64,000 nucleotides of DNA, taken from Mucilaginibacter oryzae (GTDB lineage Bacteria; Bacteroidota; Bacteroidia; Sphingobacteriales; Sphingobacteriaceae). Position 1 is the stretch's first letter, and each line of letters opens with the position of its first letter. The stretch lies in assembly GCF_003148845.1 (NCBI RefSeq), contig NZ_QGHA01000004.1, positions 434,001 through 498,000 on the forward strand. Reading direction: 5' to 3'. Made by a program: the position numbers and the translations under genes. Shown one piece after another: positions 22,716 through 29,737 of this stretch. A model generated the notes under the pieces. The model saw nothing but the letters and a program-made list of their open reading frames with translations, did not search any database and was not told the origin of the DNA.

Positions 22716-23663
22716 TTATTCTATAAGGCCGCGGCCAATTTTTTTGATCTTATTTTCGGCTTTCAGCTCAATCAAAATCTTGTCTAAGATACCGTTTATA
22801 AATGAATTACTTTTAGGTGTACTAAACTCTTTCGAAATCTCCAGGTACTCGTTAATAGTCACCTTAACCGGTATCGAATTAAAGTTAATAAACTCGGTAA
22901 TAGCCATTTTCATCAGCAGTGTATCCATCATGGCAATACGCTCGGGCTCCCAGTTTTGGGTTTTGGCGGCAATCAGCTCCTGGTAAGCGCCATCGTACCG
23001 CACACTTTGCTGAAACAGGTTCACTACAAACTCGCGGTCTTCAACCCAGTTGCCGGTAATTTCGGCCAGGTGGTTAAGCTTGTAATCATCGTGCGAGAAG
23101 TTTTTGAACGTTTTGGCTATCAATGCCTGTAAAACATCCTTATCAACCGGCCAAAAAATAAACATATCCTCAAAAACCTGTTCGGCCAGCGATGATTTCA
23201 GGATCACTTTTTTGAAAATGAATTTGATGATGTCTTTGTCGGTTTGCAGGGTATCGCCGGTTTTGGCAAGATATTCTGCATACTCGGGCGAATTGCGGAG
23301 GGTGATGAAAAGGGTTTTGGCCAGTTCGGGTTCAAAATTCCAGTCAACCTTGTACTTTTTCTTAGCCTGTATGTACTCTTTGTTATCATTAAGGCTAACT
23401 ATAAACCTGTTGGTGATAATTTTAAGGTTGGGGTTCAGGTCTTCGGCGGTGGGCAGGTGTTTGTTGGCACGTTCCTGTGCGTCGTTTTCTGAAAAACTTA
23501 CCACTTCCCCAATCAGCGAGAGCATCCAGATATACATTTCGTAAACCTGATCGATGCTATGGAGCATGTTTTTTTCGAAAAGTTTAACATCTTTCGTATC
23601 CGATTGGTGATACGCGTACAGTGCCTGTAGTACTTTTACCCGGAGGTGCCTTCTGTTTAACAT
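22716..23663 (-). CDS. nusB: Transcription antitermination factor NusB, long Bacteroidota form
   Basis: 315 residues, about twice the E. coli length because Bacteroidota NusB has an N-terminal extension. The start L-N-R-R-H-L-R-V-K-V-L-Q-A-L-Y-A-Y is typical, and the canonical NusB fold is at the C-terminus: M-D-T-L-L-M-K-M-A-I-T-E, I-P-V-K-V-T-I-N-E-Y-L-E-I-S-K-E-F-S-T, S-F-I-N-G-I-L-D. It binds boxA RNA with NusE to prevent premature termination in rRNA operons. Confidence 0.95.
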   Translation of the reverse strand: MLNRRHLRVKVLQALYAYHQSDTKDVKLFEKNMLHSIDQVYEMYIWMLSLIGEVVSFSENDAQERANKHLPTAEDLNPNLKIITNRFIVSLNDNKEYIQAKKKYKVDWNFEPELAKTLFITLRNSPEYAEYLAKTGDTLQTDKDIIKFIFKKVILKSSLAEQVFEDMFIFWPVDKDVLQALIAKTFKNFSHDDYKLNHLAEITGNWVEDREFVVNLFQQSVRYDGAYQELIAAKTQNWEPERIAMMDTLLMKMAITEFINFNSIPVKVTINEYLEISKEFSTPKSNSFINGILDKILIELKAENKIKKIGRGLIE

Positions 23664-23724: not shown

Positions 23725-24810
23725 TTAATAGGATGATTTTACCTTGCGGATGTCTTCAATGCGTTTTTCGGCAATTTTATTGGCCGCGTTAATGGTTGAA
23801 ATATTTTCGGCTTTTGATAGCTTTAATACGTTGCGCGTGGCTTCGTAAATATTTTCGGTAAGCTGAAGCGTGCGTTTCCTGTTAAAATTCATCAACTCGG
23901 AATAACCGGTGATGATGCCGCCCGCGTTAATTACATAATCGGGTGCAAACAGGATGCCCTTATCAACCAGCATTTGCCCGTGTTCGGCCTCATCCCGCAG
24001 CTGGTTATTGGCCGAGCCCGCTATGATACCGCATTTCAATTTACCGATGGTTTGGCTGTTAACCGTGCCGCCCATAGCGCATGGCGCGTAAATATCGGCA
24101 TCGATATCAAAAATGGTGTTGTTTGATACCGCCTCGGCGCCATATTTTTTGGCTATCTGTATTACGCGCTCCTCGTTAATATCGCTGGCGTAAACCTTTA
24201 CATTTTCATCGCGCAGTAAACGTACCAGGTTTTCGCCAACGTGACCAATACCCTGTACAATAACCGATTTGCCGGTTAAGCTGTCGCTACCGTACATTTC
24301 GCGGGTGCAGGCTTTAATGCCCATCAATACGCCGAGGGCTGTGATAGGCGATGGGTCGCCGCTGCCGCCAATATTTTCGGGTGCGCCGGTAACATGGGTG
24401 GTTTCCATTTTAATGTACTCCATGTCGCGCGGGTTGGTGCCCACGTCTTCGGCAGCAATAAATTCGCCGTTCAGGTTTTTTACAAACCGGCCGAATTTGC
24501 GCAGTAAAGCTTCGGTTTTGCCCTGGCGCGAATCGCCGATAATTACCGAATAACCGCCGCCCAGGTTAAGGCCTGCAATGGCCGCCTTATAAGTCATGCT
24601 TTTGGCCAAACGCAGCACATCGTCCAATGCTTCACCCTCGGTACGATAGGCCCACATGCGCACACCGCCAAAGGCAGGGCCCAGGGTAGTATCATGAATA
24701 GCGATAATCGCTTTCAGGTTGGTATCCGGGTCGGAGCAGAAAACAACTTTTTTGTGCCCGAAAGCATCAAGCTGATTAAATATGGATTCCGGTAGATGTT
24801 GCTCGGGCAT
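23725..24810 (-). CDS. Glu/Leu/Phe/Val dehydrogenase family protein (leucine-dehydrogenase-like) with the catalytic Lys replaced by Tyr
   Basis: 361 residues from the ATG at 24810, close to leucine dehydrogenase length. Substrate Lys75 (M-T-Y-K) and Asp122 (A-A-E-D-V-G-T) are conserved, and the NAD domain has G-I-G-H-V-G. In the glycine loop, however, the residue after G-G-G is Tyr87 (G-L-N-L-G-G-G-Y-S-V-I-I-G-D), where active family members have the catalytic Lys (K80 of Bacillus leucine dehydrogenase). Spacing confirms the register: 12 residues from K75 and 35 to D122, as in the Bacillus enzyme. A perfect promoter precedes it, so it is expressed. It may be a reduced-activity or repurposed enzyme. 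Confidence 0.88.
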   Translation of the reverse strand: MPEQHLPESIFNQLDAFGHKKVVFCSDPDTNLKAIIAIHDTTLGPAFGGVRMWAYRTEGEALDDVLRLAKSMTYKAAIAGLNLGGGYSVIIGDSRQGKTEALLRKFGRFVKNLNGEFIAAEDVGTNPRDMEYIKMETTHVTGAPENIGGSGDPSPITALGVLMGIKACTREMYGSDSLTGKSVIVQGIGHVGENLVRLLRDENVKVYASDINEERVIQIAKKYGAEAVSNNTIFDIDADIYAPCAMGGTVNSQTIGKLKCGIIAGSANNQLRDEAEHGQMLVDKGILFAPDYVINAGGIITGYSELMNFNRKRTLQLTENIYEATRNVLKLSKAENISTINAANKIAEKRIEDIRKVKSSY

Positions 24811-24846: not shown

Positions 24847-24877
24847 CAAAAGTAGCGGTTTTTTTAGTTATGACAAA
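24847..24877 (-). promoter_or_regulatory. Promoter of the leucine-dehydrogenase-like gene
   Basis: Reading the minus strand: TTTG (24874-24877), 19-base spacer, TACTTTTG (24847-24854), then 36 bases to the ATG. Exact match to the Bacteroidota -33/-7 consensus. Confidence 0.75.
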
Positions 24878-24952: not shown

Positions 24953-25117
24953 ATGATTTTTAAGAAGAGCAAGAAGCAAGTGTTTTGCTCTATGTACTAT
25001 AAAAGAATATTTATAGGATTAATATACATTTTTGTATTATTAGTAGTACATTTAATAGACATTTATCATTATGTTTGGATCAATAATGATCCTAAGCTTT
25101 ACAGTAAAAAAAGATAA
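24953..25117 (+). CDS. Small membrane peptide, or the displaced N-terminus of the next gene
   Basis: 54 codons from the ATG at 24953. A basic start (M-I-F-K-K-S-K-K-Q) is followed by one hydrophobic segment (I-F-I-G-L-I-Y-I-F-V-L-L-V-V at 19-32) and a short polar tail. It overlaps the peptidase-like frame by 47 bases. The frame ends just after a run of seven A (25106-25112); one A fewer would fuse it in frame with the downstream protein, giving a membrane-anchored peptidase of about 210 residues. It could be a genuine small gene, a phase-variable N-terminus or a frameshift. Confidence 0.4.
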   Translation: MIFKKSKKQVFCSMYYKRIFIGLIYIFVLLVVHLIDIYHYVWINNDPKLYSKKR

Positions 25118-25586
25118 AAAGGAAATTACCTTATACACTAGTAAGAGTAATTTAATTGATAACGAGCAGTATACGGGGTTGGAGGAGACGCCTTTATTTA
25201 AGGCTCAAATGGAAGGTCTAAAGAAACAATATCCTGAACTCATTTTCAAAACATCACCGTCAGATTGTTATAACTGCCATGGAATGACATTTGCAAGTAG
25301 AAGGACAGGGATATATGATGCAGAAGAGGTTAAGAAAATATTAATGGATGATGAGTTTCATGAGATTCAGTTGGGAGACGTTTTAGCGGGAGATATTGCC
25401 GTATGGTACGATAAAAAAAATGGTGACGCAGAACACTCTGGTTTTGTCATTTCAGTGCAACGAGATATACAACCAGTAGTGCCATTTGTAATAAGTAAAT
25501 GGGGAATTACGTCAGAAGTAATACATTCCGTATACTTAACTCCATACTCCAATACGGATATTAAATATTATAGGTGTAAATTATGA
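25071..25586 (+). CDS. Papain-like (NlpC/CHAP-type fold) peptidase candidate, first gene of an AT-rich operon
   Basis: 171 residues from ATG 25071; an in-frame ATG at 25086 is an alternative. The central motif D-C-Y-N-C-H-G-M-T-F-A-S-R-R offers a nucleophile Cys, and G-D-I-A-V-W-Y followed by E-H-S-G-F-V-I-S-V supplies the strand and the His of a Cys-His pair. This order is seen in NlpC/P60, CHAP and related amidases. K-W-G near the C-terminus fits the same fold. The exact family is not recognised. It overlaps the next gene by four bases (ATGA). Base composition is clearly more AT-rich than the surroundings, suggesting acquisition. Confidence 0.6.
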   Translation: MFGSIMILSFTVKKDKKEITLYTSKSNLIDNEQYTGLEETPLFKAQMEGLKKQYPELIFKTSPSDCYNCHGMTFASRRTGIYDAEEVKKILMDDEFHEIQLGDVLAGDIAVWYDKKNGDAEHSGFVISVQRDIQPVVPFVISKWGITSEVIHSVYLTPYSNTDIKYYRCKL

Positions 25587-25996
25587 ATACAAATAAAGAA
25601 CAATTGGACTTAAGTACTTTAATGAAGTATCTAAGTTTTGCTAATACACCATCATATTTGTATAAGCACTACAAAGAAAATGATTCTATCGCGACTCTAT
25701 CAAGCAGTTATTCAACTGATGCTATAGTAAGTGATTTTATGGCAATTGTTAATACGGAAAGGCGAACAATAGAAGATTTAACATTACTATATTCTTTTAT
25801 AATCGCTTTGACATTTAAACCTACAGAGCAAGTCAACTTTTTCTTTAAACAATTGAAGGATGCGCCGTTGAGATGGGCTGAAAAAATTGCCTCTATATAT
25901 TTCGCAAATAATTCATCTGAAGTGTGTGATTATAATATAGTGTCTGAAAATATTAGTTTCCAGAAAGATTTAAAAGTAAACACTGAAATATTTTAA
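25583..25996 (+). CDS. Unrecognised helical protein, second gene of the AT-rich operon
   Basis: 137 residues with no signal peptide or membrane segment. Predominantly helical by eye (for example T-E-R-R-T-I-E-D-L-T-L-L-Y-S-F-I-I-A-L and F-F-K-Q-L-K-D-A-P-L-R-W-A-E-K-I). I do not recognise a family. The ATGA overlap with the peptidase gene and a two-base gap to the next gene suggest all three are made together in fixed ratio, as in complexes or toxin-immunity sets. Function unknown. Confidence 0.55.
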   Translation: MNTNKEQLDLSTLMKYLSFANTPSYLYKHYKENDSIATLSSSYSTDAIVSDFMAIVNTERRTIEDLTLLYSFIIALTFKPTEQVNFFFKQLKDAPLRWAEKIASIYFANNSSEVCDYNIVSENISFQKDLKVNTEIF

Positions 25997-25998
25997 AT

Positions 25999-26385
25999 AT
26001 GTATTTACAATCGCTATTGGTTGCAGAAGAGGGTTTAAGAGATTATAATAGCAATAAGATATCTTTAATAAATATCATAGATTCAGTATCTGCTACTGCT
26101 TTTCCATTGTCTCTTGAAAAATTTGTAGTCTTTGCTTTGGCTTACAGAGAAGCAACTGATTTAGAGATATACCAGTTCTCAGGTACATTATTTATATATA
26201 ATAATGATGAGCTTTTAAAGTCTTCCGATTTTAACTTTAAATTTGGAGAGAAAAATGTTATGAGATATTTATCTCGTTGGAGCGGTGTTGTATTTCAATC
26301 GCCAGGTACATGTCGAATTGTAATGAAATTTGAAAACGGCACAACGAAAGAAGTTTATTTTGAATTAAAAAAAATCGATAAGTGA
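25999..26385 (+). CDS. Small beta-rich protein, possibly DUF6941-like, third gene of the AT-rich operon
   Basis: 128 residues, soluble. It begins Y-L-Q-S-L-L-V-A-E-E-G-L-R-D-Y and N-K-I-S-L-I-N-I-I-D, continues with strands such as F-V-V-F-A-L-A-Y-R-E and F-S-G-T-L-F-I-Y, and ends in P-G-T-C-R-I-V-M-K-F-E, a pattern of a small beta-sandwich. The arrangement resembles DUF6941 proteins, but I hold this only loosely. A perfect hairpin follows the stop by nine bases and probably ends the operon. Confidence 0.5.
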   Translation: MYLQSLLVAEEGLRDYNSNKISLINIIDSVSATAFPLSLEKFVVFALAYREATDLEIYQFSGTLFIYNNDELLKSSDFNFKFGEKNVMRYLSRWSGVVFQSPGTCRIVMKFENGTTKEVYFELKKIDK

Positions 26386-28900: not shown

Positions 28901-29737
28901 CTACAGCTTATTCAATTCATCCATCAGCACCTTGCTGTACTTGTTAAAATAGCGCCTCACCCCAAAACCCATTACCGTTTGGATGCCCCTGGTAGCGTTG
29001 GTTAAAAACACCTCATCGGCTTCGTACAAAATATCGGGATTGATCTGGGCTTCGGTTAGGGGGATATTGTTTTCTTCGGCCAGTTTAATCACTACCTGGC
29101 GCATTACGCCTTCCACACACCCCTCGCTTAAAGCAGGCGTATACAAATGATTTTGGTAATTAATAAAGATATTGGAGCTGCTGGCCTCGCATAAATTGCC
29201 GTTTTGGTTCAACAGAAAAACATCATCAAGCCTGTTTTGCGTTTTATGGATGCCCGCCATCACATAAATAAGCGAGTTGCAGGTTTTTATGTTGGATAGG
29301 TAATTACATGGCTTGGGCAAATCGGCAAAAACATCCATAATAAGCCCGCGCTCGTTTAAAAAATAGCGGGGCTCCTCGCTGGGGTTCAGTTCCAGGCAGT
29401 AACCCATTTTGTTTTGGCTTGGCGTGTAAAGGCCTTCGGCATCGCGGTAAACAGTAAGGCGCAGCCTGCCATGCTTAACTCTGTTACGGCGGGCCAGTTC
29501 GGTCACTATCTCGTTTAAAAACCAGGTATCCATTTGCGAGTACCCGTCAATTTTGAGGGCTTTCATGCCGCGCTGCAGCCGGTCGGCATGCAGTTCGGCA
29601 AATTTCAGTTTTCCCTTCATCAGCCGCATACTTTCAAACAGGCCGTCGCCATATTTAAAGCCCCGGTTACCGACGCTCAACAGCGGTGTGTTTTGCGGAA
29701 AATATTCGCCGTTAAAATTGATGAATACGGGCATCAT
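28901..29737 (-). CDS. Class IV PLP aminotransferase, candidate aminodeoxychorismate lyase (PabC-like)
   Basis: 278 residues. Fold-type IV signature: N-R-G-F-K-Y-G-D-G-L-F-E-S-M-R near residues 24-38, the PLP Lys in S-N-I-K-T-C-N-S, and C-E-A-S-S-S-N-I-F, then T-N-A-T-R-G-I. This family includes branched-chain aminotransferases, D-amino-acid aminotransferases and PabC. The length and the presence of pabB elsewhere in the window favour a folate role (4-amino-4-deoxychorismate to p-aminobenzoate), but this is not settled by sequence. Two adjacent in-frame ATGs (29737 and 29734) are possible starts. Confidence 0.78.
   Translation of the reverse strand: MMPVFINFNGEYFPQNTPLLSVGNRGFKYGDGLFESMRLMKGKLKFAELHADRLQRGMKALKIDGYSQMDTWFLNEIVTELARRNRVKHGRLRLTVYRDAEGLYTPSQNKMGYCLELNPSEEPRYFLNERGLIMDVFADLPKPCNYLSNIKTCNSLIYVMAGIHKTQNRLDDVFLLNQNGNLCEASSSNIFINYQNHLYTPALSEGCVEGVMRQVVIKLAEENNIPLTEAQINPDILYEADEVFLTNATRGIQTVMGFGVRRYFNKYSKVLMDELNKL

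What the first reader, a model, noticed from the sequence alone, without database searches (positions are those of the whole stretch)
23725..24810. Leucine-dehydrogenase-like protein with Tyr in place of the catalytic Lys
Seen: the glycine loop reads G-G-G-Y (Tyr87), with the substrate Lys75 and Asp122 kept at exactly the spacing of Bacillus leucine dehydrogenase (12 and 35 residues). Known: the Lys at this position is required for catalysis across Glu/Leu/Phe/Val dehydrogenases. The gene has an otherwise intact fold and a perfect promoter. Inference: it is either a pseudoenzyme/regulator or uses another amino donor chemistry.
Basis: partly seen in the sequence, partly recalled or inferred. 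Interest (0 to 1): 0.6.

Follow-up and report, generated by a model that had tools for sequence, protein, structure and literature searches.

The report
Leucine dehydrogenase repeatedly lost catalytic lysine
A soil bacterium carries an intact, strongly conserved relative of the enzyme leucine dehydrogenase whose key catalytic lysine is a tyrosine, and nearly half of the genes examined in its bacterial family have also lost that lysine, many times over, while staying under selection, which suggests the protein now does a job that does not need the textbook reaction.

Summary
The ORF at 23725-24810(-) is a leucine dehydrogenase (LeuDH) orthologue with Tyr87 in place of general base Lys80; Lys75 (K68) and Asp122 (D115) are kept. 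It is neither a sequencing error nor a private oddity. In the window's genus (Mucilaginibacter, inferred) 71 of 123 readable genes lack the Lys (Y42 S23 N2 C2 M1 T1). Across the family 116 of 256 genes read lack it; outside the family 0 of 78 read. The best family tree needs at least 13 Lys/non-Lys changes. Every non-Lys gene keeps Asp115; Lys68, Asn261 and the NAD residues are unchanged wherever read. Asp115-to-Glu occurs in 48 other genes, always with Lys, so the catalytic pair is altered in 164 of 256. Purifying selection stays strong (omega 0.043-0.054; Lys sets 0.036-0.039; nusB 0.057-0.062). Tyr genes also changed pocket residues (Leu40 to Phe in 39 of 42). In one part of the genus whose remaining copies all lack Lys, the gene was deleted cleanly. 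Best reading: a ligand- and NAD-binding LeuDH homologue whose selected role does not need full LeuDH turnover (sensor or pseudoenzyme), or else a re-tooled enzyme. Activity is untested.

The parts
23725..24810 (-). leucine dehydrogenase orthologue, 361 aa, without the catalytic Lys
24550..24552 (-). TAT codon of Tyr87 in place of general base Lys80
   Evidence: sequence; alignment
24586..24588 (-). Lys75 (= Lys68, substrate carboxylate), kept
   Evidence: Lys in 115 of 115 non-Lys80 and 140 of 140 Lys80 family genes read there
24445..24447 (-). Asp122 (= Asp115), kept
   Evidence: Asp in 116 of 116 non-Lys family genes
24670..24672 (-). Phe47 (= Leu40, pocket lining), changed in Tyr genes
   Evidence: Phe in 39 of 42 Tyr genes against 1 of 52 Lys genes of the genus
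24547..24549 (-). Ser88, next to the lost Lys
   Evidence: Ser in 40 of 42 Tyr genes; Ala in 52 of 52 Lys genes of the genus
24235..24252 (-). NAD-binding glycine motif GIGHVG, kept
   Evidence: translation; Gly187, Gly189, Gly192 and Asp210 invariant in the non-Lys family genes read there
24847..24877 (-). Bacteroidota-type promoter match TTTG-N19-TACTTTTG
   Evidence: 6 matches in window, 3.9 expected by chance
22716..23663 (-). nusB, immediately downstream; conserved neighbour of the locus
   Evidence: Pfam NusB; adjacent in 123 of 124 genus loci, the other cut short by its contig end

Best explanation
This is the only leucine dehydrogenase orthologue found in the genome, at its usual place before nusB, and it belongs to a family-wide group in which the catalytic pair Lys80/Asp115 has been released from constraint while the rest of the protein has not. 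Shown: the Lys is lost recurrently; Asp115 is kept in every gene that lost it; the residues for substrate carboxylate (Lys68, Asn261) and NAD are kept; the gene evolves under strong purifying selection; pocket residues changed in Tyr genes (here Leu40 to Phe, Thr43 to Val, Thr112 to Ala, Val294 to Gly; in most other Tyr genes also Gly42 and Ala113 to Ser). Inferred: without Lys80 the water step of deamination is crippled (a Lys80 mutant of Bacillus LeuDH had 1.5% deamination activity), so the selected role is binding of NAD(H) and a branched-chain amino- or keto-acid-like ligand with little or no turnover, as a sensor, regulatory or moonlighting protein descended from an enzyme. In the Tyr genes this state looks settled: Tyr is held through at least nine synonymous codon switches. 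In another part of the genus the Lys-less gene was later deleted.
For: Lys lost in 116 of 256 family genes read against 0 of 78 outside; at least 13 Lys/non-Lys and 27 multistate changes on a 288-row tree made without the active-site columns. Same locus for all: nusB directly downstream in 123 of 124 genus loci, Lys or not; a divergent ABC-transporter gene upstream in 67 of 80 named loci. Omega 0.043-0.054 in five non-Lys sets, 0.036-0.039 in two Lys sets, nusB of the same sets 0.057-0.062. Lys68, Asn261, Asp203 and the NAD glycines unchanged in all non-Lys genes read there. TAT/TAC switched at least 9 times among 40 Tyr genes. Of columns constant in Lys rows, those changed in non-Lys rows lie in the pocket in 4 of 7 cases, against 8 of 60 unchanged ones (Fisher p 0.016, post hoc). 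Lys80 as general base, residual 1.5% activity, and K80A not weakening the Km for leucine (3.7 against 5.1 mM): PMC12018205 and PMC6033044 (passages). Precedent: Thermus GdhA, a catalytically inactive subunit for leucine activation (PMC9570180, passages).
Against: No assay of any of these proteins was found. Asp115 is strictly kept when Lys is lost, which fits retained chemistry as well as binding. No partner, ligand or target is known, and no active LeuDH paralogue exists to regulate. Point estimates of omega are higher in non-Lys than in Lys sets (no confidence limits computed). Other active-site residues drift in non-Lys genes: Glu114 changed in 27 of 116 (13 of 140 Lys genes), Gly290 in 21 of 115, Asn262 in 5 of 115. 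Gene deletion in Lys-less lineages fits dispensability there. On the NusB tree part of the Tyr genes are mixed with Lys and Met genomes, so reversals from Tyr are not excluded.
Confidence: 0.48

Rival explanations
1. Re-tooled enzyme: hydride transfer to or from NAD is kept (NAD site, Lys68, Asp115) but the substrate no longer needs a water-activating base, for instance a preformed or cyclic imine, a secondary amine, or a hydroxy/keto acid. Tyr or a small polar residue then replaces Lys as a pocket residue.
For: Asp115 is Asp in 116 of 116 non-Lys genes although Asp-to-Glu arose nine times on Lys-bearing branches; about 34% of tree length is non-Lys, so all nine on Lys branches has chance about 0.024 (my arithmetic on a rough parsimony, post hoc). 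Pocket residues changed together with the Lys in Tyr genes. Lys68 and Asn261 kept.
Against: Nine different residues at the position are hard to reconcile with one new chemistry. No substrate hint from the neighbourhood. The independent-pairs test of Lys against Asp/Glu was uninformative (median p 1). The gene is dispensable in 20 relatives; at their empty sites nothing stands in its place (elsewhere in those genomes not searched).
Confidence: 0.27
2. Slow but sufficient LeuDH: demand for leucine deamination or amination is low in this family (transaminases may do most of it), so mutations that cut activity are tolerated; ammonia or amines in the cell may partly stand in for the Lys.
For: A Lys80-mutant LeuDH went from 1.5% to 20% deamination activity with 1 M ammonia (PMC12018205, passage). 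Two class IV aminotransferase matches in the own genome. Asp115-to-Glu occurs in 48 of 140 Lys genes. Of 20 losses of the gene with nusB kept, 19 lie in a group whose remaining copies all lack Lys.
Against: Purifying selection stays strong, with omega below that of nusB. Tyr is bulky, leaves no obvious cavity for an amine, and is held in its group. Pocket residues changed with it.
Confidence: 0.2
3. Sequencing or assembly error, or a decaying pseudogene.
For: Only the general possibility; some relatives have lost the gene.
Against: 42 Tyr genes in separate genomes with both codons; open frames; omega 0.049-0.054 in Tyr sets.
Confidence: 0.01

Closest known systems
Leucine dehydrogenase (EC 1.4.1.9; 1LEH, 6ACF, 8GXD)
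   Same: Fold, length, Lys68, Asp115, Asn261 and NAD motif; nusB within 400 bases downstream in 15 of 16 comparison loci outside the genus, five of these 16 from the same family
   Different: General base Lys80 is Tyr; pocket Leu40 is Phe and Val294 is Gly here (Cys in most of the family)
Thermus thermophilus GdhA (inactive regulatory subunit of hetero-oligomeric glutamate dehydrogenase)
   Same: A member of the Glu/Leu/Phe/Val dehydrogenase superfamily described as catalytically inactive and serving activation by leucine (PMC9570180, passages)
   Different: GdhA works beside an active paralogue GdhB in one hexamer; here there is one LeuDH-type gene per genome and no active LeuDH partner. Its own catalytic residues were not compared
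Lys80 mutants of Bacillus LeuDH
   Same: Same residue removed; they show what the loss costs (PMC12018205, PMC6033044, passages)
   Different: Laboratory mutants with an unchanged pocket; the natural Tyr genes also changed pocket residues
Engineered amine dehydrogenases from LeuDH (e.g. K68S/N261L/I111F/V294C/E114V, PMC8766677)
   Same: V294C and, in four genus genes, E114V occur naturally in this family
   Different: Engineers removed Lys68 and kept Lys80 (PMC6033044, passage); here Lys68 is kept and Lys80 lost

Membership tests
Leucine dehydrogenase (ELFV dehydrogenase family) | ELFV N-terminal and NAD-binding domains | tested here: met
   PF02812 E 4.9e-29, PF00208 E 5.3e-23; PDB LeuDH E down to 8e-121; fold match
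Leucine dehydrogenase (ELFV dehydrogenase family) | General base Lys80 | tested here: not met
   Tyr87
Leucine dehydrogenase (ELFV dehydrogenase family) | Lys68, Asp115, Asn261, NAD glycines and Asp203 | tested here: met
   present in the window protein and in the non-Lys relatives read there
Leucine dehydrogenase (ELFV dehydrogenase family) | NAD-dependent leucine deamination | not testable with these tools
   needs assay; none listed in paper searches
Pseudoenzyme | Loss of a residue required for catalysis in an otherwise conserved fold | tested here: met
Pseudoenzyme | Selective constraint kept after the loss | tested here: met
   omega 0.043-0.054, nusB control 0.057-0.062
Pseudoenzyme | Absence of catalytic activity | not testable with these tools
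   needs assay
GdhA-type regulatory subunit | Active Lys-bearing LeuDH-type paralogue in the same genome | tested here: not met
   one match in each of 124 gene-bearing genus genomes; own genome otherwise has a glutamate dehydrogenase, L002

The most novel reading that the evidence does not exclude
In this family (Sphingobacteriaceae) the LeuDH orthologue has become a new kind of NAD-dependent protein in which Lys80 is dispensable and Asp115 the sole essential acid/base residue, and the Tyr genes have a re-tooled pocket for an undiscovered reaction that needs no water activation, such as imine or secondary-amine redox.
Probability: 0.22. Interest if true: 0.8.

Novelty: new variant of a known kind. 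Interest (0 to 1): 0.6.

Why it matters
A lysine treated as indispensable in amino acid dehydrogenases (engineers who re-tooled LeuDH had to keep it, PMC6033044, passage) has been exchanged at least 13 times on the best tree of one bacterial family while the gene stays under selection. That gives a natural series (Lys, Asn, Ser, Thr, Cys, Gln, Gly, Ala, Met, Tyr) in one orthologue, several of them in named species, for testing how an enzyme passes to a non-enzymatic or new enzymatic role. It also warns that a 'leucine dehydrogenase' or 'Glu/Leu/Phe/Val dehydrogenase' label in this family should not be read as leucine dehydrogenase activity.

Tried and rejected
Sequencing error and pseudogene: rejected. 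Second Lys-bearing copy: none. Replacement of the locus from outside: not needed, since nusB is adjacent in Lys and non-Lys genomes alike. A relocated Lys in the pocket: of the pocket columns listed, only that of Ala187 ever holds an extra Lys, in 3 non-Lys and 4 Lys genes, so it does not compensate. One origin of all Tyr genes: holding the 40 main Tyr genes as one clade is not rejected (p-AU 0.43), while two further Tyr genes (L021, L236) sit in a Ser-bearing clade, so at least two origins are likely. Direction of change (loss or regain) is not settled by the trees. The independent-pairs test of Lys against Asp/Glu had too few informative pairs, so their exclusivity rests on counts and event placement. 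Neighbouring small ORFs in the window gave no functional hint. A second PDB search, meant to show the Thermus GdhA alignment, showed only LeuDH alignments, so GdhA's own residues were not compared. Paper searches on leucine dehydrogenase with catalytic lysine, Lys80, Mucilaginibacter, general base/pseudoenzyme, K80/K68/D115, Sphingobacterium, Pedobacter, and branched-chain fatty acids in Bacteroidetes (and on amino acid dehydrogenase pseudoenzymes) listed nothing on this loss. One search failed on a print statement and was repeated. Searches checked identities and counts for this report.

Full report
What is there. The ORF at 23725-24810 on the minus strand encodes 361 aa. Pfam gives both ELFV dehydrogenase domains, and the five closest solved sequences are leucine dehydrogenases (6acf, 8gxd, 8hpe, 3vpx, 1leh; E 8e-121 to 7e-108). 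The alignment puts Tyr87 at Lys80, Lys75 at Lys68 and Asp122 at Asp115. AlphaFold2 with a 59-row alignment gives pLDDT 90.7, and the first nine Foldseek matches are LeuDH (TM 0.93 to 8gxd, 0.90 to 6acf). The promoter match lies 36 bases before the ATG, but such matches are frequent in the window.

What the Lys does (literature, passages only). PMC6033044 section 2.1: Lys80 activates the water that attacks the iminium ion, stabilises the oxyanion, and interacts with the carboxylate; K80A and K80Q raise Km for ketoisocaproate, while Km for leucine rises for K80Q and falls slightly for K80A (3.7 against 5.1 mM); 'K80 had to be retained' when LeuDH was engineered. PMC12018205: 1 M ammonia raised deamination of a Lys80 mutant from 1.5% to 20% of wild type. 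PMC8766677 Table 1 lists Leu40, Gly41, Gly42, Met65, Val291 and Val294 as lining the pocket, and Ala113, Glu114 and Thr134 among positions that alter specificity or enlarge the site.

Survey of the genus. Named hits point to Mucilaginibacter: of 80 named loci, the best 80 of 266 that encoded a relative, K39 Y26 S10 N2 M1 C1 T1, including two Pedobacter with K. In the whole-genome set 124 of 149 genus genomes have the gene, each one match at E <= 1e-30. Of 124 loci, 123 can be read at the site: K52 Y42 S23 N2 C2 M1 T1; one fragment does not reach it. Asn codons, one base from Lys, Tyr and some Ser codons, are present.

Survey of the family and beyond. In the family sample 232 of 261 genomes have a match, 193 of them outside the genus. 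I read 133 of these 193 (60, 70, 3), picked by similarity and to cover genera, not at random. Family total with the genus: 256 genes, K140 Y42 S42 N13 C7 T5 Q3 G2 M1 A1. All 21 genomes read from one unnamed genus (g18) have Ser or Cys. Outside the family 34 of 34 and 44 of 44 genes read have Lys and Asp115; these too are a selection, mostly the better-scoring matches.

Trees. With active-site columns left out, the LeuDH tree of 129 rows (three genus fragments dropped) needs at least 7 Lys/non-Lys and 13 multistate changes. The tree of the neighbouring NusB, 146 rows (one gene not in its locus and two short ones dropped), needs 7. A family tree of 288 rows (two short rows dropped from 290) needs 13 and 27. 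Many forks are weak, and losses cannot be told from regains. The 40 main Tyr genes as one clade are not rejected (p-AU 0.43); on the NusB tree some of them are mixed with Lys and Met genomes.

What stays and what changes. In the non-Lys family genes Lys68, Asn261, Asp203 and the NAD glycines are unchanged in every gene read there, and Asp115 is Asp in 116 of 116. In Lys genes Asp115 is Glu in 48 of 140. So 164 of 256 family genes have a changed Lys80/Asp115 pair and none has both changed, against 0 of 78 outside. By rough parsimony Asp-to-Glu arose nine times (with one reversal), all on Lys-bearing branches, though about 34% of tree length (8.8 of 25.9) is non-Lys; the chance is about 0.024 if branches were random (my arithmetic, post hoc), and the independent-pairs test was uninformative. 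Other site residues drift too: Glu114 changed in 27 of 116 non-Lys and 13 of 140 Lys genes, Gly290 in 21 of 115 and Asn262 in 5 of 115 non-Lys genes. In the Tyr genes of the genus Leu40 is Phe in 39 of 42, Gly42 Ser in 28, Ala113 Ser in 29, and the residue after the Tyr is Ser in 40; Lys genes of the genus have Leu (51 of 52), Gly (52), Ala (52) and Ala (52). The window's own subgroup of ten Tyr genes keeps Gly42 and Ala113 but has Val43, Ala112 and Gly294; the window itself also has Thr293. Columns at least 99% constant in 174 Lys rows but changed in at least 5% of non-Lys rows lie in the pocket in 4 of 7 cases, against 8 of 60 unchanged columns (Fisher p 0.016, post hoc).

Selection. MG codon-model omega: Lys 0.036 and 0.039 (two random draws of 12), Tyr 0.054 and 0.049 (two draws of 12), the three other non-Lys clades 0.043 (6 genes), 0.053 (9) and 0.043 (12) (run, read). 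NusB on the same sets (10 of 12 genes in one of them) is 0.057-0.062. By these point estimates the Lys-less genes are constrained more than nusB and slightly less than the Lys genes; confidence limits were not computed. Among 40 Tyr genes the codon switched TAT/TAC at least nine times.

Locus and deletion. nusB follows LeuDH in 123 of 124 genus loci; the other is cut short. A divergent ABC-transporter gene (Pfam ABC_membrane) lies upstream in 67 of 80 named loci, several of the rest being cut short; it was not found in the window. Of 25 genus genomes without a LeuDH match, 20 have a full nusB. In these 20 no LeuDH remnant was found in the 1.5 kb before nusB, and an ABC-type gene starts there in the opposite direction. 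On the NusB tree 19 of these 20 fall in a 34-row group (SH-aLRT 90) whose 15 gene-bearing members all lack Lys; the twentieth is a draft genome 88% complete. No deletion falls among the 40 main Tyr genes there. The remaining five genomes without LeuDH could not be placed.

Interpretation. A decaying gene does not fit the omega values. A normal LeuDH does not fit the recurrent loss of its general base. The common factor is a kept NAD site and a kept site for a carboxylate ligand. I therefore favour a binding-competent, catalytically attenuated protein with a sensing, regulatory or moonlighting role (0.48). Next come a re-tooled enzyme that does not need water activation (0.27) and a slow but adequate LeuDH (0.20). 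Thermus GdhA is a precedent within the superfamily: catalytically inactive and used for leucine activation (PMC9570180). It needs an active paralogue, which is absent here.

Limits. No activity, ligand or expression data. Sampling is not random. The tests on pocket changes and on Asp/Glu were chosen after seeing the data. Of each paper cited I saw only the passages returned by the calls named.

Noticed in passing
L286, L288, L290, L303, L337, L383 and others (family loci): Asp115 is Glu in 48 of 140 Lys-bearing family genes and in 0 of 78 genes read outside the family; never together with loss of Lys80.
   Followed up: partly
L351-L371 (unnamed genus g18): All 21 genomes read have Ser or Cys for Lys80, and Glu114 is also replaced by Ile, Leu, Thr or Ser.
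   Followed up: partly
family loci, alignment position of Val294; L011, L015 for Glu114: Val294 is Cys in most family genes (122 of 139 Lys and 96 of 115 non-Lys genes read there) and Glu114 is Val in four Lys genes of the genus; both substitutions were used by engineers to make amine dehydrogenases from LeuDH.
   Followed up: no
window 25071-26385 (+): Three small ORFs, one a weak DUF6941 match, lie upstream of the gene where most relatives have a divergent ABC-transporter gene.
   Followed up: partly
window 28901-29737 (-): Class IV aminotransferase gene about 4 kb from the LeuDH-like gene; whether it acts on branched-chain amino acids was not tested.
   Followed up: no
L244-L263: Twenty genus genomes without the gene show an empty site between a divergent ABC-type gene and nusB, with no LeuDH remnant found.
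   Followed up: yes
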